A stretch of DNA of 44,364 nt. Origin: Elusimicrobiota bacterium. Lineage in GTDB: Bacteria; Elusimicrobiota; UBA8919. Below are positions 8,613-44,027 of this stretch, piece after piece (position 1 is the first letter of the stretch; each line of letters opens with the position of its first letter). Where the stretch lies: positions 1 through 44,364 of the forward strand of contig JBFLWK010000014.1 in the NCBI GenBank assembly GCA_040757695.1. The letters are read 5' to 3'. The position numbers were made by a program, and so were the translations under genes. The notes beneath the pieces were generated by a model. The model was not told where the DNA came from, did no database searches, and saw nothing but the letters and a program-made list of their open reading frames with translations.

Positions 8613-8648
8613 AAAACTTATGGAAAGATTATTTCAAGTGGAGAAAAA

Positions 8649-8809: not shown

Positions 8810-8818
8810 GTAAAAGTT

Positions 8819-9349
8819 ATGAAGAAGATATATTGTGATATTTCAAAATGTCTTGGATGCAGAAGTTGCGAACTCGCCTGCGCAGTTGAGCACTCCAAAA
8901 CAAAAATTTTAGAGCGAGCAATTTACGAAACACCGTTACCAGAAAAACGTGTTTCTGTAGAACAGTTGTCTTTACCTTCTACCTTCTACCTTCTGCCTTC
9001 TACCGTTCCTTTACAGTGCCGTCATTGCGAAGATGCACCCTGTGTAAAAATTTGTCCTACAAAATCAATGGAGAAAATGGAGAATGGGATTGTTTTACAT
9101 CACGATGAGACCTGTATCGGTTGTAAATGGTGTATTATTGTCTGCCCATTTGGGATTCCAAAAACAAACAAGGCGGGTAAAACAATAATAAAATGTGACC
9201 TGTGTATTGAACGACTGAAAAATAATGAATCTCCTATATGCGTTTCTGCTTGTCCAACAAAAGCGCTTAAATTCAAAGAAGCAGAAGAAATTGCACAAGA
9301 GAAGAAGAAAAAGTTTTTAGTTGAGTTTGTTTTTTCTACGAAACTTTAG
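8819..9349 (+). CDS. four-cluster ferredoxin (CooF/HycB-like) with repeat insertion
   Basis: This 176-residue electron carrier has four [4Fe-4S] motifs: CLGCRSCELAC, CRHCEDAPCVKICP, CIGCKWCIIVCP and CDLCIERLKNNESPICVSACP. It is the expected electron partner of CooS and can pass electrons to the diaphorase encoded next. It is longer than the usual 140-160 residues because a 7-bp tandem array (8974-9004) is inserted in frame. That array encodes LPSTFYLLPSTV between the first two clusters, immediately before CRHC. The cysteine pattern is intact, so the protein is probably functional. Confidence 0.88.
   Translation: MKKIYCDISKCLGCRSCELACAVEHSKTKILERAIYETPLPEKRVSVEQLSLPSTFYLLPSTVPLQCRHCEDAPCVKICPTKSMEKMENGIVLHHDETCIGCKWCIIVCPFGIPKTNKAGKTIIKCDLCIERLKNNESPICVSACPTKALKFKEAEEIAQEKKKKFLVEFVFSTKL
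8974..9004. repeat. 7-bp array (ACCTTCT)n inside ferredoxin gene
   Basis: ACCTTCT x3, GCCTTCT and a partial ACC lie back to back, adding residues to the ferredoxin without breaking the frame. Confidence 0.85.
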
Positions 9350-9448
9350 TTTCGGTTCCCAGCAGAGGCGGATCCCTGCCTGTAGCAAGGAAGCTCCTTT
9401 GGCGGAAAAACTAGCAAAACCGATGCTAAAGCATCATAGAATAATTGT

Positions 9449-9892
9449 ATGAGTATACAAAAATTGATTAAGAAATACGAAAAAACAGAAGAGAATGTTT
9501 TAGGTATCCTTGAAGATTTACAACAGGAATTCAATTATCTATCCGAAGAGCATCTGCGACTTATATCAGAAAAGTTTAAAGTTCCATTAAGTAGAATCTA
9601 TTCTTTAGCAACTTTTTATAAAGCGTTTTCACTTAAGCCAAAAGGGAAACATATTATACTTGTATGTTTAGGAACCGCATGTCATGTTCGTGGTGGACCC
9701 AAAATTGTTGAAACGGCTAGTCGTCTGCTAGGTATTCAACCCGGTGAAACAACTGCTGACAAACTATTCACTTTGGAAACCGTCAACTGTCTCGGTGCTT
9801 GTGCGTTAGGACCGTTAATGGTTATAGACGGCAAATACTATGGTAAAATGTCATCTGCAAAAGTAAACAAAATAATTGAGAGTTACAAATGA
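9449..9892 (+). CDS. NuoE/HydC-like [2Fe-2S] subunit
   Basis: This 147-residue thioredoxin-fold [2Fe-2S] subunit belongs to NADH-dependent diaphorases (NuoE, HoxE, HydC). Two helices at the N-terminus are followed by the ligands VCLGTACHVRG and NCLGACALGP, the standard C-x4-C plus C-x3-C pattern. Length is normal for NuoE. There is no clear Shine-Dalgarno sequence before the ATG. It follows the four-cluster ferredoxin and precedes the NuoF-like gene, which together form the flavin module that exchanges electrons with NAD(P)H. Confidence 0.9.
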   Translation: MSIQKLIKKYEKTEENVLGILEDLQQEFNYLSEEHLRLISEKFKVPLSRIYSLATFYKAFSLKPKGKHIILVCLGTACHVRGGPKIVETASRLLGIQPGETTADKLFTLETVNCLGACALGPLMVIDGKYYGKMSSAKVNKIIESYK

Positions 9893-10010
9893 AGCACAAA
9901 TGGAATAAGTTTTCAAGATGATGAAAGAGAAAGTACTGGATTGGGAAGAGGCAATGCTTTTTAAAACTTTTATGTATTTGAAAAAATAAGTTAAAAAGGG
10001 CATCAACTTT
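9893..10010. other. short gap without a supported gene
   Basis: The 118 bp between the NuoE-like and NuoF-like genes contain no convincing ORF. In some HydABC-type operons a small ATPase gene sits here. A short open stretch is visible but is too short to assign. Confidence 0.4.
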
Positions 10011-11942
10011 ATGAAAATAAATTCAGTTGATGAATTAGAAAAATTAAGAAGTGAAATTGTCACACAACGAAACCCAGAGCAAACTGTAATAAGTATTGGA
10101 AATGGTACTTGCTGTAGGGCGGTTGGCTCAGAAAGTGTTGCTGATACTTTTATAGAGGAAATTAAGAAAAGAAATTTAAAAGATAAATTTATTTTACAAC
10201 TTACAGGCTGCCAAGGATTTAGTGAACAGGACCCTGTAGTAGTGATTTATCCAAAGAAAATTTTTTATCACCAAGTAAAACCAGAAGATGTTACTGAAAT
10301 ATTAGATTCTATTGTGGCAGGTAAGATAGTTAATAGACTTTTATATGAAAACTTTATGTACGAAGCAGAAATCCCGTTCTTCAGGATGCAAAAACGATTT
10401 CTTACTAGTAGTTTTGGTAAAATAAATCCATTGAGTATATCAGATTATATTTCTATTAGTGGATATTCAGCATTAGCAAAAGCACTACAAATGAATCCGG
10501 AAGAAATTATTGATGAAATAAAAAAATCCGGTCTGCGTGGTCGTGGTGGTGCCGGCTTTCCGACGGGTAGAAAATGGTCTGCCTGCCGTCAGTCCAATCC
10601 AACAACTAACAACCAACAACTAACAACTAAGTATATCATCTGCAATGCTGATGAAGGTGACCCGGGTGCATTTATGGACCGCTCACTCTTAGAAAGTAAT
10701 CCACATTCTGTTATTGAAGGAATGATTATTGGTGCATATGCGATTGGTGGTTTAGGTAGCCGATCCTTCAGCCCCGCCGAGCATGAAGCCCATAAAGGGC
10801 TGAATGCTCGGCTACAAGGGGCTTCAGGGTCGGTTGAAATTCAAGGTTATATTTATGTTCGTAATGAATATCCATTAGCAGTGAAACATTTACAAATTGC
10901 ACTTACACAGGCAAAAGAATATGGATTTTTAGGTGCGAATATTTTGGGAACTGAGTTTTCATTTGATATAAAAATAATTCGTGGTGGTGGTGCATTTGTA
11001 TGTGGTGAGTCATCTGCATTAAGAGCATCTATTGAAGGTAAAATAGGTGAACCATCAGTAAAATATGTTCATGCAACAGATAAAGGACTCTACGACAGAC
11101 CTACAGTTTTGAATAATGTAAAAACATGGGCGTCTGTGCCTTTAATAGTCAATAATGGCGCTGAATGGTTTTCATCAATCGGTACAGAAAAATCCAAAGG
11201 GACAATGATATTTTCGCTTGTCGGAAAAATCAACAATACAGGGCTTGTAGAAGTGCCCATGGGTATAAAACTTCGGCAGTTGATTTACGATATTGGCGGT
11301 GGAATTCCAAATAACAAAAAATTCAAAGCAGTTCAAACAGGTGGTCCTTCAGGTGGCTGTATTCCAGAGAGTTTATTAGACCTACCAGTTGATTACGAAG
11401 CACTAACAGAAGCAGGTTCTATGATGGGTTCTGGTGGGATGATAGTTATGGATGAAGATACCTGTATGGTAGAAGTAGCGCGATATTTCTTAGCATTCAC
11501 TCAGGATGAGTCCTGTGGGAAATGCACTCCCTGCCGTGAAGGAACGAAAATTATGTTAGATATCCTAACTCGTATCACACAAGGAAAAGGTTCACAAGGT
11601 GATATTGAACTGCTTGAAGAGGTTGGTCAGATGGTCAAAGATACTGCATTGTGTGCGCTTGGTAATAGTGCGCCTAATCCTGTATTAACTACAATAAGAT
11701 ATTTTAGAAATGAATACGAGGCACATATAAAAGAAAAAAAATGTCCAGCAAAGCAATGTAAATCACTTATTACATATAGCATACTGGAAAAATGTAATGG
11801 CTGCCATGTGTGTTTTAAGAACTGTCCACAAGAGGCGATTTCTGGTGAGCCCAAAAAACTGCATACAATAAATCAGGATAAATGTATCAAATGTGGTATC
11901 TGCTTTGATCTCTGTAAATTTGCTGCTATAGAAATTCAATGA
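10011..11942 (+). CDS. NuoF/HydB-like NADH-binding flavoprotein subunit with two repeat insertions
   Basis: This 643-residue FMN and NAD(H)-binding diaphorase subunit belongs to the HydB/HndC class. Residues 1-110 form a thioredoxin-like [2Fe-2S] domain (GNGTCCRAVGSE, TGCQGF). GLRGRGGAGFPTG (about 172-184) and CNADEGDPGAFMDRS bind FMN, and RGGGAFVCGESSAL binds NADH. SCGKCTPCREGT (about 500) and a later Cys ligate [4Fe-4S]. Residues 590-643 carry two ferredoxin clusters (CNGCHVCFKNCP, CIKCGICFDLC). Two stretches absent from homologues interrupt the core. One is a heptamer array encoding NPTTNNQQLTTK before YIICNADEGDPG. The other is a palindromic element encoding about 27 residues between AYAIGG and GYIYVRNEYPLA. 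The catalytic motifs remain in frame. Confidence 0.92.
   Translation: MKINSVDELEKLRSEIVTQRNPEQTVISIGNGTCCRAVGSESVADTFIEEIKKRNLKDKFILQLTGCQGFSEQDPVVVIYPKKIFYHQVKPEDVTEILDSIVAGKIVNRLLYENFMYEAEIPFFRMQKRFLTSSFGKINPLSISDYISISGYSALAKALQMNPEEIIDEIKKSGLRGRGGAGFPTGRKWSACRQSNPTTNNQQLTTKYIICNADEGDPGAFMDRSLLESNPHSVIEGMIIGAYAIGGLGSRSFSPAEHEAHKGLNARLQGASGSVEIQGYIYVRNEYPLAVKHLQIALTQAKEYGFLGANILGTEFSFDIKIIRGGGAFVCGESSALRASIEGKIGEPSVKYVHATDKGLYDRPTVLNNVKTWASVPLIVNNGAEWFSSIGTEKSKGTMIFSLVGKINNTGLVEVPMGIKLRQLIYDIGGGIPNNKKFKAVQTGGPSGGCIPESLLDLPVDYEALTEAGSMMGSGGMIVMDEDTCMVEVARYFLAFTQDESCGKCTPCREGTKIMLDILTRITQGKGSQGDIELLEEVGQMVKDTALCALGNSAPNPVLTTIRYFRNEYEAHIKEKKCPAKQCKSLITYSILEKCNGCHVCFKNCPQEAISGEPKKLHTINQDKCIKCGICFDLCKFAAIEIQ
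10601..10629. repeat. 7-bp array (AACAACT)n inside the nuoF-like gene
   Basis: AACAACT, AACAACC, AACAACT, AACAACT, then AAG. The array splits the conserved region between GRKW and YIICNADEGDPG without a frameshift. Confidence 0.85.
10760..10833. repeat. 74-bp palindromic element inserted in frame in the nuoF-like gene
   Basis: Nested inverted repeats are visible. The inner perfect pair is GCCGAGCAT (10776-10784)/ATGCTCGGC (10804-10812), with AGCCC/GGGCT inside. The outer imperfect arms are CCGATCCTTCAGCCCC and GGGGCTTCAGGGTCGG. It is GC-rich compared with its surroundings. It encodes an extra peptide in a position where NuoF homologues run directly from AYAIGA into (N)KGYIYVR. Confidence 0.8.
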
Positions 11943-11957
11943 TCAAGAGGGGAAACT

Positions 11958-12373
11958 ATGGGTAAAGTTATTGTTAAAACGAAACTCTGGAATTTTTGTG
12001 ATGAGGTAGAAGTAAGAAAAGGGCTCCGCAAGCCTGAAGAGATAAGATCGGTTGAAGTTGATGCTTTAGTTGATACAGGTGCGACGATGGTAAGTTTACC
12101 AAAGAAATTAGTAGAAGCACTTGGGTTATTATTCTTACGTGAAACTACAGTTACTTATGCTGATGGTAGGAGAGAGAAAAAAAATGTTGCTACGGGTTTA
12201 AATATTGAAATTTTAGGTCGATTAGCATTGACTGATTGCCTTGTTGAAGAGCTAGAGACAAAAGTTTTAATTGGCCAAATCCCGCTTGAAGAAATGGATT
12301 TGATTGTAGATCCAAAAAATGGAGCAATTGGTCCTCGTCCTGAATCGCCAGATATGCCATTAATTGAAATGTT

Positions 12374-12377
<4 letters not shown>
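11958..12377 (+). CDS. retropepsin-like clan AA aspartic protease
   Basis: This 139-residue protein of the bacterial clan AA aspartic protease group (retropepsin-like) has the catalytic motif LVDTGATMVSLP at residues 36-47 and a second region LIGQIPLEEMDLIVDP. It ends with the GAIGPRPESPD signature typical of the TIGR03698-type family. A single catalytic Asp per chain implies a homodimer. There is a good GAGGGG Shine-Dalgarno sequence, and its stop overlaps the start of the HoxU-like gene (ATGA). Lying between two diaphorase subunit genes, it could act in maturation of the complex. That role is inference, and the family is often found beside toxin-antitoxin or unrelated genes. Confidence 0.8.
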
Positions 12378-13136
<759 letters not shown>

Positions 13137-13153
<17 letters not shown>

Positions 13154-14012
13154 AAAAATTGATTATTCACTGAAACTCTGCCGAGAGGTTTTAGGACTTC
13201 CAGCATTCCATTTCGGGTATTTTGATGAAACGCGGAACAGACGCGAAACGACACACGGAACAGACACGGAACTAACTATTGATGATTTGAAACAGGCACA
13301 GTTAAAATATACTGAAAAACTGTTAAATTATATTCCTGAAAATGTAGAAACAATTCTTGATGTCGGTTGCGGAACAGGGATTTCAACAGAGATGCTTATT
13401 TCAAAAGGGCTTAATGTTGAATGTTTAAGCCCTGACCTGTATAATCAACAAATAATTACTGAAAAGTTTAAAGATGCAGTTAAATTTCATCTTATAAAGT
13501 TTGAAGAGTTTTCTACTGATAAAAAATATAACCTTGTACTAATGAGTGAAAGTTCACAGTATATATCGCTGAAAATACTTTTTTACAAATGTAAAGAAAC
13601 TTTAACTAAAAACGGCTATATTCTACTATCTGACTATTTCAGAAAAGAGCCAACCAGCTATTACAGAAACTGCGCTGTTTTATCGGAATTTCTTGAAGAA
13701 GCAGAAAAAAATAATTTCAAAATTTTGAAATCAGAAGATATTACTGAAAATATTCTGCCGACACTTTCACTGGGAAATTATTACTATCAACATTATGCGA
13801 TTCCAATACTGGAATCGCTGATTTCATTAGCAAATGACGAACTCCCAAAAACAACTAAAATTATAAAAGTTCTGTTTAAACAAAAAATTTATAAACAGAA
13901 AAAACGGATATACGAAAAATATCCAGAAATGCTGGATACTGAACAATTCAGAAAGAACCTGAAATATATGATATACCTGTTCCGGAAAGGACGAGAAACA
14001 AACGCGGAATGA
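13137..14012 (+). CDS. class I SAM-dependent methyltransferase
   Basis: This 291-residue protein has a Rossmann-fold methyltransferase core: motif I ILDVGCGTGIST near residue 75 and motif II/III FSTDKKYNLVLMSESSQY. The substrate is not evident. It starts inside the end of the HoxU-like gene and precedes acsB. It does not resemble AcsE, the methyl-THF methyltransferase, which is a TIM barrel. An N-terminal stretch NRRETTHGTDTEL comes from the ACGGAACAGAC repeat family (about 13227-13270), and the gene's 3' end runs into another copy. Lys/Glu-rich C-terminus. Confidence 0.8.
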
Positions 14013-14100
14013 AACGCGGAACAGACGCTAAATGTTCTGCGTCAGTTTTGCGGGTTCTTCAAAGTTTAGCGTTAGTTTGGCGATTTTCAGGAGGGAAATA

Positions 14101-16278
14101 ATGTCAAAAATTGTTGCTACCGCTGCTATAAAAGGCGCAAAAAAATTTGTTCAAGAAGCAGAAGAATTTTTAAACAAAGCAATTTTAGAAAAAAGCGAAT
14201 CACAGAAAGTAGAATTCCCGGATACCGCATACTATTTCCCAATGGCGTATGCATTATTGGGTTTAGAAGTAAAAACGCTTGGTGAGTTAAAACCGGTTTT
14301 GCAAGAAGCAAAATCGCTTTTGCATAATGAGCCAACAGAAACTATATGGCTGCCTTATTTAGGTGATGCGTTAGATTCCGGTATCGCAACATTACTTGCT
14401 GAAGAAATTATCGTCGGGCTACGATATCTTTACAAACAGGAACCGCAACAGGATTGTAACGGCTTTTTTTCAGATACAATTTTAAGGTCACTTGGTATCC
14501 AGCTTGTTGATGGCAGGATGCCCGGGTTTGCCGCAATTTTAGGCGCTGTGCCTGATAACAAAACTGCGGTTGAAATAGTAAGAGAACTTCAAAAAAGAAA
14601 TATTTTGATATTTGTTGGCTCGTCAACAAATGGACGCTCAATCATAGACCAGTTAAAAGAAGAAAAAGTTGAAATGGGCTGGGATAATTACATCGTTCCA
14701 TATGGTAGAGACACAGTTACAGGAATTTATCCGCTAAACTGGGCGATAAGAGCTGCATTAACATTTGGTGGCTTGAGAGCTGGTGAGCCGTTGAAATGCT
14801 TGAAATACTGTCAGAACAGGGTCTTCGCATTCGGTTTAGCACTCGGCACTGTTGATGACGAAAAATATGCTACTGGCGCAGGTGCAATCAATATGGGTTT
14901 TCCTGTAATTGCAGATACAGATATTCCTGAAATTCTACCGACGGGCATCTGTACTTACGAGCATCTTGTCAAAGAACTGGATTACAAAAAAATTGTGCCA
15001 CGCTGTATTGAGGTTCGTGGTGTAAAGGTAAAAGTTTCAGAGATACCAATCCCGGTTGCATATTCTGCAGCGTTTGAAGGTGAACGAGTAAGAAGAGAAC
15101 AGACATATATGGAAGCAGGTAGTAAATTCTCTACTGCGTTTGAATATGTGACAACAAAAAATTTGGACGAAATTGAGGATGGTAAATTTGAAATTATAGG
15201 TGTTGAAATTGACGATATAAAAGAAGATTCTGCAGTACCACTTGCGATTTATGTAGAAGTTGCCGGTAGAAAAATGCAGAAAGAGTTTGAATCAATTGTT
15301 GAACGCCAGATTCATACATATCTGAATGAAGCACAAGGTGTGATGCATACAGGTCAGAGGGATTTGCTCTGGCTTAGAATCTCCAAAGAGGCGAAATCAA
15401 AGGGCTTTAAGTTGAAACATCTTGGCACAATTATTCATGCTCGGATTCACGAGATATTCGGTACTATTATTGATAAGGTTCAAGTTAAAATTTATACAAA
15501 CCAAGAGGATGTAGAAAAACTGTTGCCAACTGCCCGTGAAGCGTATAAATTCCGCGATGAACGGATTGGTGCGATGACGGATGAATCGGTTGACACATTT
15601 TATTCCTGTACACTCTGTCAGTCGTTTGCACCAAATCATTTGTGTATTGTGAAACCGGAACGACTGGGCTTGTGCGGTGCGTATAACTGGCTTGATTGCA
15701 AGGCGTCGTTTGAAATAAATCCAACCGGACCTAATCAGCCGGTAAAAAAAGGTACGATGTTAGACGAAATAAGAGGCGAGTGGCAGGGCATCAATGACTG
15801 GGTAAAAATAAAATCAAACGGTCATTTAGAACGGTTTCACGGATATTCTATTATGACCTGCCCTGAAACCAGTTGCGGCTGTTTTGAATGTATAGGCGCA
15901 ATTGTTCCTGAGGCAAACGGATTTATGATTGTCAACCGCGAGTATTCGGGCATGACACCACTTGGTATGACATTTTCTACACTTGCTGGTTCAGTTGGTG
16001 GCGGCAACCAAACGCCTGGATTTATGGGTTTCGGTCGGCTCTATATCATATCAAAAAAGTTTATCAAAGCAGATGGCGGACTGAAAAGAATCGTATGGAT
16101 GCCGAAAGAGTTAAAAGAGGCGATTTCTGAAAAATTTAAAAAACGTGCTGAAGAAGAAAACATACCAATTTTTCTTGATAAAATCGCCGACGAAACTGTT
16201 GCAACTGATACCGAAAAACTTCTTGAGTTCTTGCAAAAAGTAAATCATCCTGCACTTACAATGGAACCACTGTTATAA
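14101..16278 (+). CDS. acsB: acetyl-CoA synthase (CO dehydrogenase/acetyl-CoA synthase subunit)
   Basis: This 726-residue enzyme assembles acetyl-CoA from CO, a corrinoid-bound methyl group and CoA. The A-cluster is complete: SCTLCQSFAPNHLC, then nine residues, then GLC (about residues 502-525), reproduces the C-x2-C-x8-C-x9-C spacing of Moorella ACS, and TSCGCFEC (about 590) supplies the CGC motif for nickel. Length matches bacterial AcsB, including the N-terminal CODH-interacting domain. I chose the ATG at 14101 because of the perfect CAGGAGGG Shine-Dalgarno sequence. An upstream in-frame start would translate repeat sequence. AcsC, AcsD and AcsE are not in the window. Confidence 0.95.
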   Translation: MSKIVATAAIKGAKKFVQEAEEFLNKAILEKSESQKVEFPDTAYYFPMAYALLGLEVKTLGELKPVLQEAKSLLHNEPTETIWLPYLGDALDSGIATLLAEEIIVGLRYLYKQEPQQDCNGFFSDTILRSLGIQLVDGRMPGFAAILGAVPDNKTAVEIVRELQKRNILIFVGSSTNGRSIIDQLKEEKVEMGWDNYIVPYGRDTVTGIYPLNWAIRAALTFGGLRAGEPLKCLKYCQNRVFAFGLALGTVDDEKYATGAGAINMGFPVIADTDIPEILPTGICTYEHLVKELDYKKIVPRCIEVRGVKVKVSEIPIPVAYSAAFEGERVRREQTYMEAGSKFSTAFEYVTTKNLDEIEDGKFEIIGVEIDDIKEDSAVPLAIYVEVAGRKMQKEFESIVERQIHTYLNEAQGVMHTGQRDLLWLRISKEAKSKGFKLKHLGTIIHARIHEIFGTIIDKVQVKIYTNQEDVEKLLPTAREAYKFRDERIGAMTDESVDTFYSCTLCQSFAPNHLCIVKPERLGLCGAYNWLDCKASFEINPTGPNQPVKKGTMLDEIRGEWQGINDWVKIKSNGHLERFHGYSIMTCPETSCGCFECIGAIVPEANGFMIVNREYSGMTPLGMTFSTLAGSVGGGNQTPGFMGFGRLYIISKKFIKADGGLKRIVWMPKELKEAISEKFKKRAEEENIPIFLDKIADETVATDTEKLLEFLQKVNHPALTMEPLL

Positions 16279-16289
16279 AAAGGCAATTA

Positions 16290-16372
16290 AAAATGTAAAA
16301 TGTAAAATTAAAAATTGTTGTGAAAAAAATAAAATCCCATAATTTTTCATTTTTAATTTTGAATTTTTAATT
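16290..16372. repeat. inverted pair of 7-bp arrays
   Basis: The copies AAAATGT, AAAATGT, AAAATTA, AAAATTG (16290-16317) are mirrored by TTTCATT, TTTAATT, TTGAATT, TTTAATT (16345-16372). The two arms could form a long AT hairpin between acsB and the next gene and may act as a terminator. Confidence 0.75.
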
Positions 16373-16381
16373 GATATTATT

Positions 16382-17611
16382 ATGAAACTTATTGCAGATT
16401 TGCATATTCACTCTAAATACTCTCGTGCAACAAGCGGTGATATGGATATTCCTAACATCGCTAAGTGGGCAAAACTTAAAGGGATTGCACTTATGGGGAC
16501 AGGCGATTTTACTCATCCTAAATGGCTTGAACATCTGAAAGAAAACTTAAAAGAAACCGATGGTTGCTATGAACACAACAGCATAAAATTTATTCTGACA
16601 GCAGAAGTTTCAAATATCTATACAAGAACCGATAAAACACGGAAGGTGCATAATATAATTTTTGCGCCTGATTTTGAAACAGTTGAAAAAATCAATACTG
16701 AACTTGCTGGATTTGGCAACCTTGAGTCAGATGGCAGACCTATGCTTTCGCTTGATTCCGAAGATCTTGCAAAAATTGTGTTTGATATTTCAGATGACTG
16801 TATGATAATTCCTGCACATGCCTGGACACCACATTTTTCTGTATTCGGGTCTAATTCCGGATTTAACTCTTTAGAAGAATGTTTTGGCTATTATACTGAT
16901 AGAATCTACTCTATTGAAACAGGGCTTTCATCTGACCCGAAAATGAACTGGCGGCTTTCACAACTTGATAAAATTACACTCATCTCAAATTCAGATGCGC
17001 ACTCACCAAAAAATATTGGACGCGAAGCGAATGTATTTGATGTCACGAATTATACGAATTTATACGAACAAATTACCCGAATTATTAGAACAAAGGATAA
17101 AGACAAGTTTCTCTATACAATAGAGTTTTTTCCGGAAGAAGGAAAATATCATTATGATGGACACAGGAATTGCGATACTGTGCTTGCACCTAAAGATGCG
17201 ATAAAAAATCATAATCTCTGCCCGAATTGTGAGAGACGGCTTACAATTGGTGTTTTACATCGTGTAGAAGAACTTGCAGATAGAGAGGAAAATTTTCAGC
17301 CAGTAAATGCTATCGGCTACAAAAGTTTGATTCCATTAAGAGAGATTATTGCTGATGCGTTAGATATTGGGAAGGAATCCGCAGGTGTTGATAAAGAATA
17401 TCAACAGATAACATCACAGGTTGGAACTGAGTTTGATGTGCTTTTAGAAATTCCAGAAGAAATTTTACAAAAAAATATCAGAACGGAAATTGCCGAAGGC
17501 ATTATTAAGGTTAGAAATGGTGAGGTTGATATACAGGCGGGTTACGATGGTGTATATGGTAAAATTTCAATAAGAAAAGATAAAAAACAAGAACAACTTT
17601 CATTGTTTTAA
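16382..17611 (+). CDS. PHP-domain endonuclease, EndoQ-like
   Basis: This 409-residue PHP-family metal-dependent protein resembles endonuclease Q, which nicks DNA 5' of deaminated bases (uracil, hypoxanthine, xanthine). Metal-binding motifs are ADLHIHSKYS at the N-terminus, GTGDFTHP, IIPAHAWTPHF and ISNSDAHSP. A zinc-finger stretch CDTVLAPKDAIKNHNLCPNC near residue 265 and a helix-hairpin-helix-like C-terminus agree with EndoQ. Length matches. A run of ACGAATTATACGAATTTATACGAA repeat-like sequence (about 17044-17067) is read in frame as TNYTNLYEQ. It sits 6 bp before a ferredoxin gene, with no obvious functional link. Confidence 0.82.
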   Translation: MKLIADLHIHSKYSRATSGDMDIPNIAKWAKLKGIALMGTGDFTHPKWLEHLKENLKETDGCYEHNSIKFILTAEVSNIYTRTDKTRKVHNIIFAPDFETVEKINTELAGFGNLESDGRPMLSLDSEDLAKIVFDISDDCMIIPAHAWTPHFSVFGSNSGFNSLEECFGYYTDRIYSIETGLSSDPKMNWRLSQLDKITLISNSDAHSPKNIGREANVFDVTNYTNLYEQITRIIRTKDKDKFLYTIEFFPEEGKYHYDGHRNCDTVLAPKDAIKNHNLCPNCERRLTIGVLHRVEELADREENFQPVNAIGYKSLIPLREIIADALDIGKESAGVDKEYQQITSQVGTEFDVLLEIPEEILQKNIRTEIAEGIIKVRNGEVDIQAGYDGVYGKISIRKDKKQEQLSLF

Positions 17612-17617
17612 GAAAAA

Positions 17618-18094
17618 ATGAAATATCTTAATATTGATGTAACAAAATGTTCGGGTTGCCGGATGTGTGAACTTGCCTGCTCATTTATTAAAGAAAAAAA
17701 AATTGTTCCTAATCTTGCCAGAATAAATGTGGTTGCTGATTTTGGAAAAGGGCTTTCTATACCGATTGTATGTATGCAATGCGAGAATGCGCCTTGTATA
17801 AATATCTGTCCAACAAAAGCGCTCTCAAAAAATTTTGTAACCGGTGCTGTTATCGTCTCAAATAAAAAATGTATCGGCTGTAAACTTTGCACAACCGTGT
17901 GTCCTTACGGTGCGATTGTTTTTATTCCTGAAAAAAAATATGTTGTAAAATGTGACCTGTGTGATGGTGAACCAACCTGTGTAAAATTTTGCTGTACAGG
18001 TGCGTTAAGATATGACGAATCTATAAAAACAAAAATGCTAAAAAAACGGGAAGTTGCAGAAAGAATGATACAGATACTTGGCGAAATTCATTAA
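17618..18094 (+). CDS. four-cluster ferredoxin, AorA/CooF-like (copy 1)
   Basis: This 158-residue polyferredoxin has four [4Fe-4S] motifs: CSGCRMCELAC, CMQCENAPCINICP, CIGCKLCTTVCP and CDLCDGEPTCVKFC. It is a paralogue of the next gene, and both have the same length and motif order. The class includes CooF, HycB and AorA, the electron-transfer subunit of AOR-type enzymes in bacteria. The AOR gene lies one gene downstream, which makes AOR the likeliest partner. CODH service is also possible. Confidence 0.88.
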   Translation: MKYLNIDVTKCSGCRMCELACSFIKEKKIVPNLARINVVADFGKGLSIPIVCMQCENAPCINICPTKALSKNFVTGAVIVSNKKCIGCKLCTTVCPYGAIVFIPEKKYVVKCDLCDGEPTCVKFCCTGALRYDESIKTKMLKKREVAERMIQILGEIH

Positions 18095-18137
18095 AGTCTA
18101 GAAGGGGGGGAGAGGAGGGAAGAGGGGGAAGGGTAGA

Positions 18138-18614
18138 ATGAAAATTTTAGTTACTAATCCGGAAAAATGTTCAGGTTGTCGAATATGCGAAATCACTTGC
18201 TCCTATTTTCACGAGCAAATTTTTAATCCAGCCAAAGCACGAATCCAAATTGTCTCAAACAAAAAGGAAGCGATTTTTTATCCGCTGATTTGCGAGCAAT
18301 GTGAAAAAGCACCCTGTAGTGAGGTTTGTCCTGTAAAAGCGATTTCTAAAAATGACGAAACAGGCGCATGGGTTGTGGATGTGAAAAAATGTATCGGCTG
18401 TAAAATGTGTGTTCAGGCATGCCCTGCTGGAATTATGAATTTTGATAGTGATGCTGGAGTTTCTATGAAATGTGATTTATGTTCTGGTGATACGCAATGT
18501 GTCAAATACTGCCCGATGGGTGCGATTGAATATATTGACGAAAGTAAAATCAGCTTAAAGCGAAAAAGTTGGGTTGGCAAAAAAATTCTAGCAACAGTCA
18601 GTGAAAGCAAATAG
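18138..18614 (+). CDS. four-cluster ferredoxin, AorA/CooF-like (copy 2)
   Basis: This 158-residue paralogue of the preceding gene has motifs CSGCRICEITC, CEQCEKAPCSEVCP, CIGCKMCVQACP and CDLCSGDTQCVKYCP. A purine-only stretch of about 30 bases (18104-18133, many G runs) precedes the ATG and supplies the Shine-Dalgarno sequence. A tandem duplication of the electron-transfer subunit directly before an AOR gene suggests either alternative partners or an extended electron wire. Confidence 0.88.
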   Translation: MKILVTNPEKCSGCRICEITCSYFHEQIFNPAKARIQIVSNKKEAIFYPLICEQCEKAPCSEVCPVKAISKNDETGAWVVDVKKCIGCKMCVQACPAGIMNFDSDAGVSMKCDLCSGDTQCVKYCPMGAIEYIDESKISLKRKSWVGKKILATVSESK

Positions 18615-18656
18615 AAAACCACACGGATTATTATGGATGGCTACACGAATATTTAC

Positions 18657-18682
18657 AAAATGTAAGCATTTGCTTACATTTT
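18657..18682. repeat. CATTTG-loop palindrome
   Basis: The 12-bp perfect stem AAAATGTAAGCA/TGCTTACATTTT has a TT centre and is followed by GATTTTGCCCATCGGTAA. It is the near twin of 5785-5808. Confidence 0.75.
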
Positions 18683-18713
18683 GATTTTGCCCATCGGTAA
18701 ATTTTGGTTTTTT

Positions 18714-18738
18714 AATCTTTAATCTTTAATCTTTGATT
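18714..18738. repeat. 7-bp array (AATCTTT)n
   Basis: Three perfect copies of AATCTTT and a partial one lie just upstream of the G-rich Shine-Dalgarno sequence of the AOR gene. Confidence 0.8.
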
Positions 18739-18758
18739 GCCGTTATAGGGGGGGCGAA

Positions 18759-20738: not shown

Positions 20739-20777
20739 AATAAATTACAAAACCTTTTAAGAAGAAGGAGGAAAAAA

Positions 20778-22124
20778 ATGCTTACTTTGTTATGTAATGG
20801 AACGGTTATTACACAGTCTGAAATAATTGAGAATGGTGGGGTTTTGTTTGAAGATGGAATCATCAAAGATGTTGGTAGAACCGACGATGTAAGAGCAAAG
20901 GTATTCAGAACTTCACAGGATAAAATTCATCTGAAAATAGTTGATGCTAAAAGAAAGATAATTCTGCCGGGTTTTATAAATACACATCATCATTTGTATT
21001 CAACTTTTGCGCGTGGGATGTATATTCCGGGAACACCTGCTAAAAATTTTGTTGAGATATTAGAAAAACTCTGGTGGAAACTTGATAAAATTTTGACTGC
21101 AGAAGATATTTATTATTCAGCGCTTATTCCACTGATTGAATGTGTAAAAAACGGCACAACAACAATAATTGACCATCATGAATCGCAGGGTTTTCAGATA
21201 GGTTCGCTTGATGGGATACAAAAAGCAGTAGAAAAAATCGGTATCCGTGCGTGCCTATGTTTTGGTACTTCAGACCGTTATGGTAAAGGCAAAGAAGGTT
21301 TGAAAGAAAACGAAAGATTTTTCTCTCAACTCTTAACTCTAAACTCTCAACTTATTTCTGGCATGGTCGGGCTTCATGCTGCATTTACCGTCAACAATGA
21401 TACACTTGAGAAATCAGTTGAATTGGCAAAAAAATATAATGTCGGGATACATATCCATTGTGCGGAAGATTTAGCAGACGAGAACGATTCTGTAAAAAAA
21501 TACAAAATACAGGTTGTTGAACGATTAAAAAAATTCGGTGTGCTTGGTCAGAAAACATTGCTTGCACATTGTATTCATATAAACGAAAAAGAAACAAAAA
21601 TTATAAAAGATACTGGCACGAATGTGGTTCATAATCCAGAAAGTAATATGAACAATGCGGTTGGTTGTGCGGATGTTTTAGGTATGTTAAAAAAAGGTAT
21701 TATTGTCGGGCTTGGAACTGATGGTATGTCATCCAATATGCTTTCCCAGATGCGTTGTGCCTATCTGATTCACAGACATAACAAAAAAGACCCGCGGGTT
21801 GCTTTTTGTGAAGCGCCACGATTACTTTTAGAAAACAATCCTAAAATTGTAGAGAAGATATGTGGCTGGCGTGTTGGTAAAATTGAAACTGGCCGACCTG
21901 CCGATTTGGTTGTGCTTGACTATGTTCCACCGACACCGTTGACAAAAGATAATTTTCTTGGGCATTTAATTTTTGGGATGGTTGATGCAACGGTTGATAC
22001 TGTAATCTGTAATGGTAAGACCCTGATGAAAGATAAAAAATTAGAAGGTATAAATGAAGAGTTGATTTGCGAAAAATCGCGCGAGCTCGCAAAAACATTC
22101 TGGGAAAAAATCATTTCAATCTGA
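20778..22124 (+). CDS. ssnA: SsnA-like aminohydrolase/amidohydrolase
   Basis: This 448-residue amidohydrolase-superfamily member is closest by motif to SsnA. Visible are GFINTHHHLYSTFARGM (metal-binding HxH-like), NFVEILEKLWWKLDK, GTTTIIDHHES, GLHAAFT, IHIHCAEDLADENDS, AHCIHI, NVVHNPESNMNNAVGCA and GLGTDGMSSN. Conserved His and Asp metal ligands are all present. The reaction of SsnA is not established; the family deaminates purine- or pterin-like compounds. A heptamer array (21323-21353) inserts SQLLTLNSQL in frame before SGMVGLHAAF. It has an AAGGAGGA Shine-Dalgarno sequence. Its place after AOR may reflect molybdopterin/tungstopterin or purine metabolism, which is speculative. Confidence 0.88.
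   Translation: MLTLLCNGTVITQSEIIENGGVLFEDGIIKDVGRTDDVRAKVFRTSQDKIHLKIVDAKRKIILPGFINTHHHLYSTFARGMYIPGTPAKNFVEILEKLWWKLDKILTAEDIYYSALIPLIECVKNGTTTIIDHHESQGFQIGSLDGIQKAVEKIGIRACLCFGTSDRYGKGKEGLKENERFFSQLLTLNSQLISGMVGLHAAFTVNNDTLEKSVELAKKYNVGIHIHCAEDLADENDSVKKYKIQVVERLKKFGVLGQKTLLAHCIHINEKETKIIKDTGTNVVHNPESNMNNAVGCADVLGMLKKGIIVGLGTDGMSSNMLSQMRCAYLIHRHNKKDPRVAFCEAPRLLLENNPKIVEKICGWRVGKIETGRPADLVVLDYVPPTPLTKDNFLGHLIFGMVDATVDTVICNGKTLMKDKKLEGINEELICEKSRELAKTFWEKIISI
21323..21353. repeat. 7-bp array (CTCTCAA)n inside the ssnA-like gene
   Basis: CTCTCAA, CTCTTAA, CTCTAAA, CTCTCAA and CTT lie in frame. The unit is a rotation of the one in the HoxU-like gene. Confidence 0.85.
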
Positions 22125-22164
22125 CAGGATTTACAGAATAAATAAAATCCTGTTAATCCTGTCA
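22123..22164. repeat. CAGGATTTACAG-type inverted repeat
   Basis: GACAGGATTTACAG pairs with CTGTTAATCCTGTC across a short A/T loop, and A-rich sequence follows. It may serve as a terminator for the ssnA transcript. The same family forms 32203-32250 and a half copy is at about 5906. Confidence 0.65.
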
Positions 22165-22205
22165 AAAATCAATACCGTTTTTAAGGTGTCGGAGCGAGAA
22201 AAACG

Positions 22206-24428: not shown

Positions 24429-24433
24429 TAAAT

Positions 24434-26518: not shown

Positions 26519-26542
26519 TTTAAGCCCCCCCCATCCCCCCAC

Positions 26543-26570
26543 TTGTTTTTTCTAAGAAATTTAGTATAAT
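26543..26570 (+). promoter_or_regulatory. promoter giving a leaderless DUF502 mRNA
   Basis: TTGTTT (26543-26548), a 16-bp spacer and TATAAT (26565-26570). The ATG at 26579 is only 8 nt after the -10 box, so transcription would start at or next to the start codon. No Shine-Dalgarno sequence precedes it. Confidence 0.6.
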
Positions 26571-26578
26571 AATACTGT

Positions 26579-29640: not shown

Positions 29641-29745
29641 GATTGAACCAGAGATTAAGAGATTGAGAGATTAGGAAATTAGGGTTAGGTGCATTCCAAT
29701 CTTCCAATCACCTAATCTTTAATTTCTGTTCTCTATTCTCTGCCT
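29641..29745. repeat. 8-bp degenerate array with inverted partner
   Basis: AGAGATTA, AGAGATTG, AGAGATTA, GGAAATTA (about 29653-29684) are followed by partly complementary TTCCAATC and AATCTTTAATTTC units. The unit is related to the GAATTAGA tract at the smpB 3' end. Confidence 0.6.
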
Positions 29746-29749
29746 TTAC

Positions 29750-29831
29750 TGGGCGCGAGAGGATTTGAACCTCCACGGTGTTATCCACAGCGTCCTGAGC
29801 GCTGCGCGTCTGCCAGTTCCGCCACGCGCCC
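29750..29831 (-). tRNA. tRNA-Leu (anticodon CAG)
   Basis: Read on the minus strand, the acceptor GGGCGCG (29825-29831) pairs with CGCGCCC (29751-29757), with discriminator A. The anticodon stem CAGCG/CGCTG encloses CTCAGGA, so the anticodon is CAG. A long variable arm (class II) and GGTTCAAATCC T-arm confirm leucine identity. The 3' CCA is not encoded. It is transcribed from the minus-strand promoter at 29887-29915. Confidence 0.95.
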
Positions 29832-29839
29832 GGAAAAAC

Positions 29840-29874
29840 AGTGATAAGTGAATAGTTATTAGTGATTAGTAACT
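29840..29874. repeat. 7-bp array (AGTGATT)n in the tRNA leader
   Basis: AGTGATA, AGTGAAT, AGTTATT, AGTGATT, AGTAACT are five degenerate heptamers between the tRNA-Leu promoter and the tRNA. Confidence 0.75.
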
Positions 29875-29886
29875 AAAACCAAAAAT

Positions 29887-29915
29887 ATTTTACTATAAAA
29901 TTCATAAATAGTCAA
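29887..29915 (-). promoter_or_regulatory. promoter of tRNA-Leu
   Basis: On the minus strand TTGACT (29910-29915), a 17-bp spacer and TAAAAT (29887-29892). Its -35 box directly abuts the -35 box of the divergent smpB promoter. Confidence 0.7.
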
Positions 29916-29944
29916 TTGAAAAATTATTCAGAATTTGGTAAAAT
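29916..29944 (+). promoter_or_regulatory. promoter giving a leaderless smpB mRNA
   Basis: TTGAAA (29916-29921), 17 bp, TAAAAT (29939-29944). The ATG at 29952 is 7 nt after the -10 box and lacks a Shine-Dalgarno sequence. Confidence 0.7.
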
Positions 29945-29951
29945 TAATATA

Positions 29952-30395
29952 ATGAACAAAAAAATCATTGCAACCAACAGAAAAGCATATTTTAATTACG
30001 AACTGCTTGAAAAATATGAAGCGGGTATTTCACTTTTAGGTAGCGAAGTGAAATCAATCCGGGCAGGACATATTGATATTAAAAATGGCTATATCAACAT
30101 TGAAAAAGGCGAATTTTTTTTGTATAATATAAATATATTGCCTTATAAACAACTTTCAGACAAAAAATACAACCCATTAAGACCCAGAAAATTATTACTA
30201 CACCGACGAGAAATAAAGAAACTGCAAGAAAAAATCGCTATCAAAGGGTTTGCAATTATTCCAACTGAGGTCTATTTCAGAAACGGGCTGGTCAAAGTTG
30301 AAATATCTGTTGCAAAAGGCAAAAAACTTTGGGATAAACGAGCAGTAATTAAAGAAAGGGAAATAAAAAAGAGAATTAGAGAATTAGAGAATTAG
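29952..30395 (+). CDS. smpB: SsrA-binding protein SmpB
   Basis: This 147-residue tmRNA partner is needed for trans-translation rescue of stalled ribosomes. It contains the SmpB signatures NRKAYFNYELLEKYEAGISL, GSEVKSIRAG, YNINILPY and KLLLHRREIKKL, and the basic tail that enters the ribosome. I chose the ATG at 29952 because upstream codons fall inside the promoter. The last codons (IRELEN) are written by a GAATTAGA tandem repeat that continues past the stop. ssrA follows 50 bp downstream. Confidence 0.95.
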   Translation: MNKKIIATNRKAYFNYELLEKYEAGISLLGSEVKSIRAGHIDIKNGYINIEKGEFFLYNINILPYKQLSDKKYNPLRPRKLLLHRREIKKLQEKIAIKGFAIIPTEVYFRNGLVKVEISVAKGKKLWDKRAVIKEREIKKRIRELEN

Positions 30396-30441
30396 AAATG
30401 GCGAAAGCATTTTACTAATTCGCTAATAACTAATTGGCTAA
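30373..30441. repeat. 8-bp (GAATTAGA)n then 7-bp array across the smpB 3' end
   Basis: Three copies of GAATTAGA (30373-30396) form the last codons and stop of smpB. They are followed by the heptamers ACTAATT, CGCTAAT, AACTAAT, TGGCTAA (30414-30441) just before ssrA. Confidence 0.7.
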
Positions 30442-30445
30442 AATT

Positions 30446-30805
30446 GGGGGTGAACAGGGCTCGACGGGGATATTTGACTGATGTAGCGGCAGGCCGCAGT
30501 TGACCGAAAGGCTGCGTAAAAAATCGGTCATACAAAAATAACTGCCGTTTATACACCGGTAGTTGCCTACGCATAATTGCGTAAGCCGCCTGCCTAACCT
30601 TTTTCTGTGAGGTTGGGGTGAGGTGTTATAAAAGCAGAATAGTTTTCGGCATTGTCGTTGTACCGAAAGCGAAACCTTAAACGACTGGCTGTCAGATATT
30701 TTGTCAGTGGAAGTTTTTGGCAGCGAGAACAAAACACTGACTATGCTTGTAGAAGCCGTTAGGCGTTATCTTCGGACGCGGGTTCGATTCCCGCCACCTC
30801 CACCA
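30446..30805 (+). ncRNA. ssrA: tmRNA
   Basis: This 360-nt transfer-messenger RNA has the tRNA-like ends GGGGGTGAACAGGGCTCGAC at the 5' side and GGTTCGATTCCCGCCACCTC plus CACCA at the 3' side. The 7-bp acceptor pairs fully (one G-U), and CCA is encoded. The tag reading frame is not certain. One frame ends PVVAYA before TAA at 30574, and another ends LRIIA before TAA at 30582. The first looks more like a degradation tag with its small hydrophobic end. smpB lies directly upstream, an arrangement common in bacteria. Confidence 0.95.
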
Positions 30806-30813
30806 GAAAGGCA

Positions 30814-30841
30814 GGTAAAAGGTTAAAGGTGAAAGGTCCAA
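30814..30841. repeat. 7-bp array (GGTTAAA)n
   Basis: GGTAAAA, GGTTAAA, GGTGAAA and GGTCCAA lie immediately after the tmRNA. The rest of the gap up to 30961 contains CACAGAAACACTGAAAA- and TTCGTG-type dispersed repeat sequence and no gene. Confidence 0.7.
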
Positions 30842-30961
30842 GGGAGCGGTAATAGGTAAGTTTTACCACAGAAACACTGAAAAAAATTATTTCGTGATTT
30901 CGCGCTTTCGTGGTTAAATTTATGCGTTTTCAGCAAAACTGAACTGTTACAGGGAGTAAAA

Positions 30962-32221
30962 ATGGATATTATTATCAAAAATGCAAAGTTGGAAAATGGA
31001 AAAATTGTTGATATTGGAATTAAGAAAGGTAAAATTGTAGAAATCAAGTCCGAAGTCCGATGTCCAAAGTCCGATGTCCAAATCATTGATGCAAAGAGAA
31101 ATCTTGTCACACCTACTTTTATTGACTCACATATTCATCTGGATAAATGTCTTATTAGCGATTCTATTCCTAAAAATATTACAGGCACACTTAAGGAATC
31201 AATAGAACTTACTTGGGCAAGAAAGAAAAGATATACAGTGAATGATATTGTTGAGAGAGCAAGTAAAGTTATTGACTGGCATATTCTGCACGGCTCAACT
31301 ATTATAAGAACACATGTTGATGTTGATACTATTGGTAAGTTAATGCCATTGAAAGGGCTTCTTGCAACTCGTGAAAAATATAGAGGCATTGTTGATTTAG
31401 AAATTGTTGCATTCCCACAGGAAGGAATTTTGCAGGATGAAGGCACTGAAGAACTTATGTATCAGGCGATGGAATCAGGTGCAGATGTCGTCGGTGGGAT
31501 GCCACATAACGAAATGACTGACGAAGATGGTAGAAGGCATATAGATATCTGTTTTGAGATTGCAAAAAAATTTAATTGTGATATTGATATGCATATTGAT
31601 GAAACAGATGACCCGAATTCACGGTGTCTCCAATATCTTTGTTGGAAAACAATCAAAGAAAAATATCAAGCTCGGGTGACTGCCGGACATACTTGTGCGC
31701 TCGCAGCTTATAACGATTATTACGCTGTGAAAGTTATTGACTGGGTAAAAAAAGCAGGTATCAATATGATAACAAATCCAGTCACAAATTTGATGATAGA
31801 AGGTCGGCTTGATAAACAGCCAATCCGTCGGGGGACAACGCGTATAAACGAACTGATTACTGCAGGTGTTAATGTTTCTTACGGACAGGACTGCGTCAAG
31901 GATACGTTCTATCCTACTTGGGGACATGGCGATATGCTTGAATGCGGATTGGTTACAGCACACGCTGCGCAATTCACACAGGTGGAACAAGTAAATTATC
32001 TTTACAAAATGATAACAGAAAACGCTGCAAAAATTTTGCGGCTGAAAGATTACGGGATTGCTGTTAGCAAAACCGCAAACTTGAATATCGTTGATGCAAA
32101 GACAATCCCGGAAATGTTCAGAACACAAGCCGACCGCCTTTATGTAATAAGAAAAGGAAAAATTATTGCCACCACAGAGATACGGAGAACACTGAAAATA
32201 CCGACAGGATTTACAGGATAA
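30962..32221 (+). CDS. cytosine-deaminase-like amidohydrolase
   Basis: This 419-residue amidohydrolase of the CodA/isoguanine deaminase group has metal and catalytic motifs FIDSHIHLDKCL, TIIRTHVDVD, DIDMHIDETDDPN, TAGHTCALA and VSYGQDCVKDTF. The length matches CodA. It would hydrolytically deaminate a pyrimidine or purine-like base. Two repeat intrusions are visible. A five-copy heptamer array (31046-31080) encodes SEVRCPKSDV in the N-terminal beta-sandwich. The last residues TTEIRRTLKIPTGFTG are translated from CACAGAGATACGGAGAACAC- and CAGGATTTACAGG-type repeats. The neighbouring cyclase and uridine phosphorylase suggest base and nucleoside salvage or degradation. Confidence 0.85.
   Translation: MDIIIKNAKLENGKIVDIGIKKGKIVEIKSEVRCPKSDVQIIDAKRNLVTPTFIDSHIHLDKCLISDSIPKNITGTLKESIELTWARKKRYTVNDIVERASKVIDWHILHGSTIIRTHVDVDTIGKLMPLKGLLATREKYRGIVDLEIVAFPQEGILQDEGTEELMYQAMESGADVVGGMPHNEMTDEDGRRHIDICFEIAKKFNCDIDMHIDETDDPNSRCLQYLCWKTIKEKYQARVTAGHTCALAAYNDYYAVKVIDWVKKAGINMITNPVTNLMIEGRLDKQPIRRGTTRINELITAGVNVSYGQDCVKDTFYPTWGHGDMLECGLVTAHAAQFTQVEQVNYLYKMITENAAKILRLKDYGIAVSKTANLNIVDAKTIPEMFRTQADRLYVIRKGKIIATTEIRRTLKIPTGFTG
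31046..31080. repeat. 7-bp array (AAGTCCG/ATGTCCA)n inside the amidohydrolase gene
   Basis: AAGTCCG, AAGTCCG, ATGTCCA, AAGTCCG, ATGTCCA give five exact 7-bp units, 35 bp in frame. Confidence 0.9.
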
Positions 32222-32250
32222 AAGAATTAAAATCCTGTAAATCCAGTCAA
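32203..32250. repeat. CAGGATTTACAGG-type inverted repeat over the amidohydrolase stop
   Basis: GACAGGATTTACAGGAT pairs with ATCCTGTAAATCC across an A-rich loop. It contains the stop codon and provides the last residues of the protein. Confidence 0.7.
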
Positions 32251-32259
32251 AAGAAATAG

Positions 32260-32308
32260 CCAAAATTCCAATGCGGGTTTGGAATTTTGGAATTTGGAAT
32301 TTAGAATT
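32260..32308. repeat. hairpin plus 7-bp array (TGGAATT)n
   Basis: CCAAAATTCCA is complementary to TGGAATTTTGG across an 8-9 nt loop. It is followed by heptamers GGAATTT, TGGAATT, TGGAATT, TAGAATT (32281-32308) and then a G9 tract used as a Shine-Dalgarno sequence. Confidence 0.7.
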
Positions 32309-32329
32309 TGCCGTTAATTGGGGGGGGGT

Positions 32330-43862: not shown

Positions 43863-44027
43863 TTTGACAAGATTAACCGGGTTTTAACTTTATCTTTATC
43901 CTGTAAATCTTTTTTATTCTCCACTTTGTAGTGCGATTTTATATGAAAAAAAATAAATCAGCAATGATTTTCCTACGTACCACTTCCTACTTAAAAAAAA
44001 GATTGAAAATTTCAAGTCTGGCACAGT

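What the first reader, a model, noticed from the sequence alone, without database searches (positions are those of the whole stretch)
8974..32308. Genome-wide style 7-bp tandem arrays, each with a different unit, between and inside genes
At least eleven tracts share an exact 7-bp period but have unrelated unit sequences: ACCTTCT (8974), AACAACT (10601), ACTCTCA (12734), AAAATGT and its inverted partner (16290-16372), AATCTTT (18714), CTCTCAA (21323), AGTGATT (29840), CTAATTC-like (30414), GGTTAAA (30814), AAGTCCG/ATGTCCA (31046) and TGGAATT (32281). The constant period with a variable unit suggests a process that copies a 7-nt register, not one mobile sequence. Heptanucleotide STRR repeats are known in heterocystous cyanobacteria, but those use few fixed units. 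Here the diversity in 24 kb is striking.
Basis: partly seen in the sequence, partly recalled or inferred. Interest (0 to 1): 0.72.

Follow-up and report, generated by a model that had tools for sequence, protein, structure and literature searches.

The report
Seven-base repeats that swap their unit
A groundwater Elusimicrobia bacterium and its relatives carry hundreds of tiny 7- or 8-base tandem repeats, even inside essential genes, and at many gene positions the repeat is kept from genus to genus while the repeated word itself is exchanged, which gives a natural record of how such repeats form and rewrite themselves.

Summary
In 1.22 Mb of this Elusimicrobiota genome, exact period-7 tracts far exceed neighbouring periods (133; period 8: 60; period 6: 3; period 9: 6; shuffles 0). 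The window has eleven period-7 and two period-8 tracts; units recur, so 'each different' is too strong.

Many arrays lie inside conserved genes, in frame although 7 is not a multiple of 3. Of 59 orthologous coding array sites, 29 carry an array in two or more genomes, and 25 of those include non-matching units. A relative has an array at the same spot in 102 of 345 comparisons, against 10 of 1,905 shifted control positions. Same-period pairs usually have identical length (52 of 68); different-period pairs rarely (3 of 29).

Best reading: slippage in 7-8-nt steps founds arrays in tolerant loops; arrays then persist at fixed length while variants spread to adjacent copies, so the unit turns over in place. 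Part of the intergenic arrays form inverted pairs with GCC[T/G]TT-marked ends.

Heptanucleotide repeats, inverted pairs and one unit switch are known elsewhere. Unit exchange at fixed coding sites appears new as a general pattern. The mechanism is inferred.

The parts
8973..9004 (+). 7-bp array (TACCTTC) inside the ferredoxin-like gene 8819-9349, read through as LPSTFYLLPST
   Evidence: about +8 aa against most homologs
10601..10630 (+). 7-bp array (AACAACT) inside the NuoF/HydB-like gene 10011-11942, encodes PTTNNQQLTTK
   Evidence: 7-residue (21-nt) insertion against nearly all aligned homologs; a homolog in G006 has an 8-bp array at the same loop
12734..12764 (+). 7-bp array (ACTCTCA, perfect) inside the ferredoxin/hydrogenase-subunit gene 12374-13153, encodes TLNSQLSTLN
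16290..16316 (+). left arm (AAAATGT/AATTAAA array) of an intergenic stem-loop after acsB
   Evidence: fold z -3.2; same arm pair at other loci (L099, L074)
16342..16372 (-). right arm (complementary array), 9 nt before the ATG at 16382
18711..18737 (+). intergenic 7-bp array (TTTAATC), followed by TGCCGTTA, 21 bp before the AOR-like gene at 18759
21323..21352 (+). 7-bp array (CTCTCAA) inside the amidohydrolase gene 20778-22124; relatives have CTCTCGT/CCCTCGT (G006, G007) or AAAAATC-like (G004) arrays here at identical length
29650..29683 (+). 8-bp array (AGAGATTA), partly complementary to 29694-29709
   Evidence: fold not better than shuffles
29840..29870 (+). weak 7-bp periodicity (AGTGATT) next to the tRNA-Leu at 29750-29831
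30370..30396 (+). 8-bp array (AGAGAATT) over the end of smpB, forming a stem-loop with 30412-30440
   Evidence: fold z -5.75
30813..30843 (+). 7-bp array (AGGTAAA/AGGTTAA) with AAAGGC before it, just after the tmRNA gene 30446-30805
31046..31079 (+). 7-bp array (AAGTCCG alternating with ATGTCCA) inside the amidohydrolase gene 30962-32221
32278..32309 (+). intergenic 7-bp array (TTTGGAA) between 32221 and 32330

Best explanation
These are heptanucleotide (and octanucleotide) simple-sequence arrays made and maintained by copying errors whose natural step is 7-8 nt, most likely strand slippage during replication or repair. Step 1 (inferred): a chance short direct repeat 7 or 8 nt apart lets the growing strand re-anneal one unit back, giving about four copies. 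Step 2 (shown by distribution): inside genes such arrays survive only where the protein tolerates them, in loops, with a total length that keeps the frame; at several sites the array genome has a net +7 or +8 residues, about three added units. Step 3 (shown by comparison, mechanism inferred): surviving arrays persist across genera at a fixed place and length. Point variants spread to neighbouring copies by out-of-register copying, so the unit changes in concert until it is unrelated to the unit at the same site in a relative. Some arrays decay to plain sequence, and tolerant loops can also gain a new array. Part of the intergenic arrays sit as complementary pairs forming stem-loops; this may add stability or mobility.
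For: Sharp peak at 7-8 in G000 and its family. Arrays in 102 of 345 orthologous coding comparisons against 10 of 1,905 control positions. 29 of 59 orthogroups carry arrays in two or more genomes; 25 of these include units that differ by 2 or more bases or in period. Same-period pairs have length difference 0 in 52 of 68; different-period pairs in 3 of 29. In-register identity of dissimilar arrays is 0.49 against 0.29 permuted. Orthologous segments without a called array keep excess lag-7 matching (0.345 against 0.276), most where length is equal (0.39 against 0.285 at +7/+8 aa). Variants shared by two copies lie in adjacent copies (66 of 76 against 26 expected). +7/+8-aa insertions at PurL, RadA, the NuoF-like gene and the ferredoxin. 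Ku/NHEJ not found.
Against: Units recur far more than genomic composition predicts (585 against 40 pairs); slippage from random local seeds does not predict this without an intrinsic unit preference. The larA-like, prmC-like and polA arrays are 97-100% identical between G000 and G004/G006 while flanks are 71-77%; neutral turnover does not predict that. Loops with the same length but no array across the phylum (enolase) need length-neutral founding or a loss balancing the gain. No copy-number change was observed directly: no strain-level or read data. Why the step is 7-8 nt is not explained by any sequence found here.
Confidence: 0.55

Rival explanations
1. The arrays are arms or remnants of small palindromic mobile elements (REP- or MITE-like) with GCC[T/G]TT ends, moved by a Y1 (HUH, RAYT-like) transposase. 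Coding arrays would be single arms left in genes.
For: 65 adjacent array pairs within 100 bp, 58% complementary against 6% in direct orientation; outward GCCTTT 44 against 1.4 expected and GCCGTT 17 against 1.0 in G000; Y1_Tnp found in all family members and in G011, absent from G008-G010 and G012, whose held loci (about 82 kb) show no arrays; unit repertoires genome-specific over all arrays.
Against: Most coding arrays have no partner arm; the end motif was not enriched in G001 or G005; one element family does not explain many units with one period; orthologous coding arrays keep length and register, not flanks; the transposase correlation rests on few lineages.
Confidence: 0.2
2. Permissive-loop saturation: arrays arise independently and often anywhere, survive only in a few tolerant loops, and so are found at the same sites with different units without any inheritance of the array.
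For: Different units and different periods at one site (21 of 62 array pairs differ in period); control positions are mostly in less tolerant sequence; array sites are indel-rich.
Against: Equal length in 52 of 68 same-period pairs against 3 of 29 different-period pairs; in-register similarity above permutation and residual periodicity in array-less relatives of equal length. It probably holds for the different-period sites.
Confidence: 0.15
3. The arrays are selected functional sequences: intergenic stem-loops acting in termination or translation, and arrays forming the n- and h-regions of signal peptides.
For: Stem-loops in the window at 16278-16384 and 30365-30440 fold better than shuffles; arrays run directly into C-L-Y-A signal-peptide ends in several secreted proteins; three coding arrays conserved above their flanks.
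Against: Unit turnover at most coding sites; arrays in unrelated housekeeping genes; no single position or partner gene.
Confidence: 0.07
4. A dedicated templated process (for example a short RNA or ssDNA guide with a 7-8-nt template) writes the arrays, in the manner of telomerase.
For: Fixed step with free unit; near-exact identity islands at prmC-like and polA arrays.
Against: No such enzyme or guide was looked for beyond Ku and Y1_Tnp, and none was found; shared variants spread to adjacent copies as expected for cis copying.
Confidence: 0.03

Closest known systems
Heptanucleotide long simple sequence repeats (Mrazek 2007, as cited in PMC4679880 and PMC4692102)
   Same: Heptamers as the favoured class among 5-11-nt units in many genomes; slippage tied to a polymerase footprint proposed
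   Different: Here the peak includes 8; coding arrays are common in housekeeping genes; orthologous sites keep length while the unit changes. Primary paper not read here.
GGGAATC / GGGGA(C/T)T heptamer repeats of Xanthomonas and Nostoc (PMC4692102)
   Same: Mostly four units, 70-75 inverted pairs per Xanthomonas genome, close to starts and stops, same location in two species with length and sequence variation
   Different: One G-rich unit there; dozens of units here, not G-rich, many inside genes
Class I / Class II heptamers of the Nostoc trnL intron P6b stem (PMC4476775)
   Same: Stem-loop built of 7-nt repeats; unit class switched repeatedly at one site with structure kept
   Different: One RNA locus and two classes; here many protein-coding sites and many units
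TAACTGA heptamer repeats of Beggiatoaceae (PMC4679880)
   Same: Heptamer direct repeats, 2-6 copies, often next to start codons
   Different: One unit; mostly intergenic
Borg tandem repeats (PMC9879509)
   Same: Unit differs at each site; arrays in genes and between genes; slippage discussed
   Different: Borg units inside ORFs are all divisible by three; here the units are 7 or 8
Rickettsia palindromic elements (from own knowledge) and bacterial MITEs/REPs
   Same: Palindromic inserts between genes and in frame inside genes
   Different: No shared element sequence; arms are arrays with variable units

Membership tests
Bacterial heptanucleotide simple sequence repeats (LSSR) | 7-nt unit tandem tracts longer than chance and more common than neighbouring unit sizes | tested here: met
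Bacterial heptanucleotide simple sequence repeats (LSSR) | Copy number varies by slippage between close strains | not testable with these tools
   no strain-level genomes or reads held; no other genome of the same genus turned up
Cyanobacterial STRR | A few fixed heptamer units dispersed through the genome | tested here: not met
   80 unit classes among 210 arrays, although some units recur often
REP / RAYT elements | Palindromic units in intergenic sequence | tested here: met
   for part of the arrays only: 65 close pairs, 58% complementary
REP / RAYT elements | A Y1 transposase in the genome, flanked by the same palindromes | tested here: inconclusive
   Y1_Tnp present; arrays within 2.5 kb of three copies, not immediately flanking
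MITE / Rickettsia palindromic element | Shared element sequence with terminal inverted repeats and target-site duplication | tested here: inconclusive
   GCC[T/G]TT ends clear in G000 only; target duplication not tested
Phase-variable contingency loci | Out-of-frame copy changes switch surface genes | tested here: not met
   arrays lie in housekeeping enzymes, in frame, with conserved length
Borg-type tandem repeats | In-ORF units divisible by three | tested here: not met
   in-ORF units are 7 or 8 nt

The most novel reading that the evidence does not exclude
A length-preserving copying process with an intrinsic 7-8-nt step keeps rewriting tandem arrays in place, so that array position and length are inherited over genus-level time while the repeated word is replaced, including inside essential enzymes. 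It would be an unrecognised mode of local sequence evolution, possibly with a dedicated enzyme or template.
Probability: 0.15. Interest if true: 0.85.

Novelty: new variant of a known kind. Interest (0 to 1): 0.6.

Why it matters
Why heptamers dominate bacterial simple repeats has been open since at least 2007 and rests on an untested polymerase-footprint idea. This family gives dozens of orthologous sites where array position and length are fixed and the unit is free, plus array-poor relatives, so step size, founding, spread of variants and decay can be measured on a tree. It also shows unrelated peptides (for example CFRLPTSDFRLP, AYHLPLTTYCLP and TYRLSITDYRLP in enolase) exchanged in one loop of an essential enzyme by a DNA-level process, and warns that similar low-complexity peptides in candidate-phylum proteins may be mutational footprints, not domains.

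Tried and rejected
Chance in an AT-rich background: rejected (shuffles near 0). Plain autocorrelation over the window: shows only the codon signal, no period-7 excess. Built-in reversed-pattern control of the pattern search: not usable, because CTCTCAA reversed is a rotation of itself. Ku-dependent end joining: no Ku found. Trans-templating between coding arrays of one genome: little support, identical classes 1.3% within against 0.9% between genomes for confirmed coding arrays, although over all arrays repertoires are genome-specific. Protein-level heptad selection: the DNA period is 7-8 nt, not 21, and intergenic arrays share it. Clean split of +7 aa for 7-mers and +8 aa for 8-mers: not seen, both sizes occur for both. 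One family scan failed for wrong frames and was not repeated.

Full report
What the window is. The window is contig 14 of a 2.89-Mb, 264-contig, 99%-complete genome. Its acetyl-CoA synthase gene is 84-88% identical to that of most members of one family, including MAGs named Elusimicrobia bacterium UBA9627, CG06_land_8_20_14_3_00_38_11 and NC_groundwater_1671. It is therefore an Elusimicrobiota metagenome genome.

Check of the observation. Lag-match scanning finds eleven period-7 tracts and two period-8 tracts in the window. Reading 1.22 Mb of the genome in stretches gives, for exact runs with at least 14 matched bases, 3, 133, 60 and 6 tracts at periods 6, 7, 8 and 9, and 0 in dinucleotide shuffles. 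With a tolerant score the counts are 10, 269, 104 and 13, and every member of the family with a sizeable sample shows the 7-8 excess, from 54 tracts per Mb (G003) to 305 (G000). Units are diverse but not all different: 210 arrays fall in 80 classes, and identical pairs are fifteen times more frequent than genomic 7-mer frequencies predict.

Where they lie. 235 of 402 TRF arrays are intergenic by my own ORF caller, although 82% of the sequence is called coding. Calling errors at gene starts inflate the intergenic share. About 110 arrays lie well inside well-scored genes, judged by sequence to be enolase, PurL, PurM, TsaD, PriA, ValS, PolA, RuvC, RadA and others, and are translated through. In the confirmed coding set, 93 of 102 coding-strand units lack stop trinucleotides in every frame, as they must when a 7-nt unit runs through all frames.

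Comparison with relatives. In the window's amidohydrolase gene the CTCTCAA array at 21323 is faced by a CTCTCGT/CCCTCGT array in G006 and G007, an AAAAATC-like array in G004 and no array in G008, all without any gap. The enolase loop has four different heptamer arrays in G000, G001, G002 and G004, and none in other genomes of equal loop length. To test this generally, ortholog regions were located with chimeric protein queries, fetched and analysed together. In 345 orthologous comparisons at 105 array sites, the relative has an array at the same place in 102, against 10 of 1,905 at positions shifted by 45-80 residues. Grouped, 59 array orthogroups remain; 29 have arrays in two or more genomes, and in 25 of these at least one pair of units differs by two or more bases or in period.

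Inheritance or repeated hits. Shifted control positions are usually less tolerant than loops, so co-location alone does not prove inheritance. Three further results favour inheritance for many sites. First, same-period pairs have exactly equal length in 52 of 68 cases, different-period pairs in 3 of 29, and array-less relatives in 63 of 242. Second, arrays with dissimilar units still match in register more than permuted pairs (0.49 against 0.29, none of 2,000 permutations as high). Protein constraint may contribute to this. Third, orthologous segments without a called array have excess lag-7 matching (0.345 against 0.276, P about 5e-25), strongest where length is unchanged (0.39) and absent where the array genome is 7-8 residues longer (0.285), which look like true empty sites. 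Different-period sites are probably independent hits of the same tolerant loop.

How the unit changes. When a variant base is shared by two copies, the copies are neighbours in 66 of 76 columns of arrays with five or more copies, against 26 expected, even in high-scoring arrays where detection bias is small. This fits spread to the adjacent copy by out-of-register copying. At several sites the birth of an array is a net gain of 7-8 residues: PurL, RadA, the NuoF-like gene of the window (PTTNNQQLTTK against nearly all homologs) and the ferredoxin.

Paired intergenic arrays. 65 neighbouring array pairs lie within 100 bp; 58% are complementary against 6% in direct orientation and 16% of random pairs. 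The two arms of a pair are each homogeneous but differ from one another, so homogenisation acts within an arm. In G000 the outward flanks are enriched for GCCTTT (44 against 1.4) and GCCGTT (17 against 1.0); G004 shows GCCGTT weakly and G001 and G005 do not. In several secreted proteins such arrays run into a C-L-Y-A signal-peptide end. A Y1 transposase family is present in the array-bearing family and G011, and absent from G008-G010 and G012, which have no arrays in the loci held. This is a lead for an element-borne subset, not a demonstration.

What does not fit. The larA-like, prmC-like and polA arrays are 97-100% identical between G000 and G004/G006 although coding sequence 12-72 bases away is 71-77% identical. 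Recent short-tract exchange, selection, or convergence on a preferred unit could do this; I cannot tell which.

Place in the literature. Heptamers as the dominant class and the polymerase-footprint idea are attributed to Mrazek and colleagues 2007 by PMC4679880 and PMC4692102; I did not read the primary paper. Inverted heptamer pairs, about four units per array and conserved location with sequence variation are reported for Xanthomonas (PMC4692102). Repeated class switching of a 7-nt repeat in one RNA stem is reported for Nostoc (PMC4476775). Borg repeats have site-specific units but in ORFs always multiples of three (PMC9879509). I found no report of the pattern shown here in the library searched. 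Most subscription papers are not in it.

Limits. Only about 42% of G000 and 44-320 kb of each main relative (8 kb for G007) were read; sites were first chosen for conserved genes and then extended to everything held; alignments next to arrays are uncertain by a few residues; pairs are not independent, so the orthogroup counts are the safer numbers; no strain or read data exist here.

Verdict. A real, genome-wide feature of a known kind (heptanucleotide repeats) in an unusually clear form. The exchange of the unit at conserved coding sites of conserved length is the new part. Slippage with local copying at a 7-8-nt step is the most likely mechanism, at about even odds or slightly better.

Noticed in passing
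L084:9725-9758 and L237 (G004): DNA polymerase I of the two array-richest genomes carries an array encoding NKRCKMQD(V/A)RCRM directly before the QVHDEL/QVHDDL catalytic motif, nearly identical in DNA between genera.
   Followed up: partly
L076:5463 with L191, L184, L215; L084:4423 with L275: Near-perfect DNA identity of the larA-like and prmC-like arrays in sequence otherwise 71-77% identical between genera (G000 against G004/G006).
   Followed up: partly
L042:17770, L042:19047-19119, L037:13373, L040:18247-18330, L072:5546: Signal peptides of unrelated secreted proteins appear to be built of array arms followed by TGCCTTTATGC-like sequence (C-L-Y-A).
   Followed up: partly
G000-G012: Y1_Tnp (PF01797) genes are present in the array-bearing family and G011 and absent from G008-G010 and G012, which show no arrays in the small loci held.
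   Followed up: partly
L107-L177 (Omnitrophota): Omnitrophota loci also show a period-7 excess (19 tracts against 1 at period 8 and 0 at period 6 in 619 kb), while Armatimonadota, Phycisphaerae and others show none.
   Followed up: partly
44022-44143: A 9-bp repeat (CACAGTTTT and variants) in a short ORF encoding QFSQFSQFS-type peptide, a different period from the rest.
   Followed up: no
30446-30805: tmRNA gene with tag AVYTPVVAYA between smpB and an amidohydrolase, with arrays on both sides.
   Followed up: no
5968-20738: Cluster with CooC-like ATPase, CO dehydrogenase, NuoE/NuoF-like hydrogenase subunits, acetyl-CoA synthase and an aldehyde ferredoxin oxidoreductase, suggesting a Wood-Ljungdahl-type pathway.
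   Followed up: no
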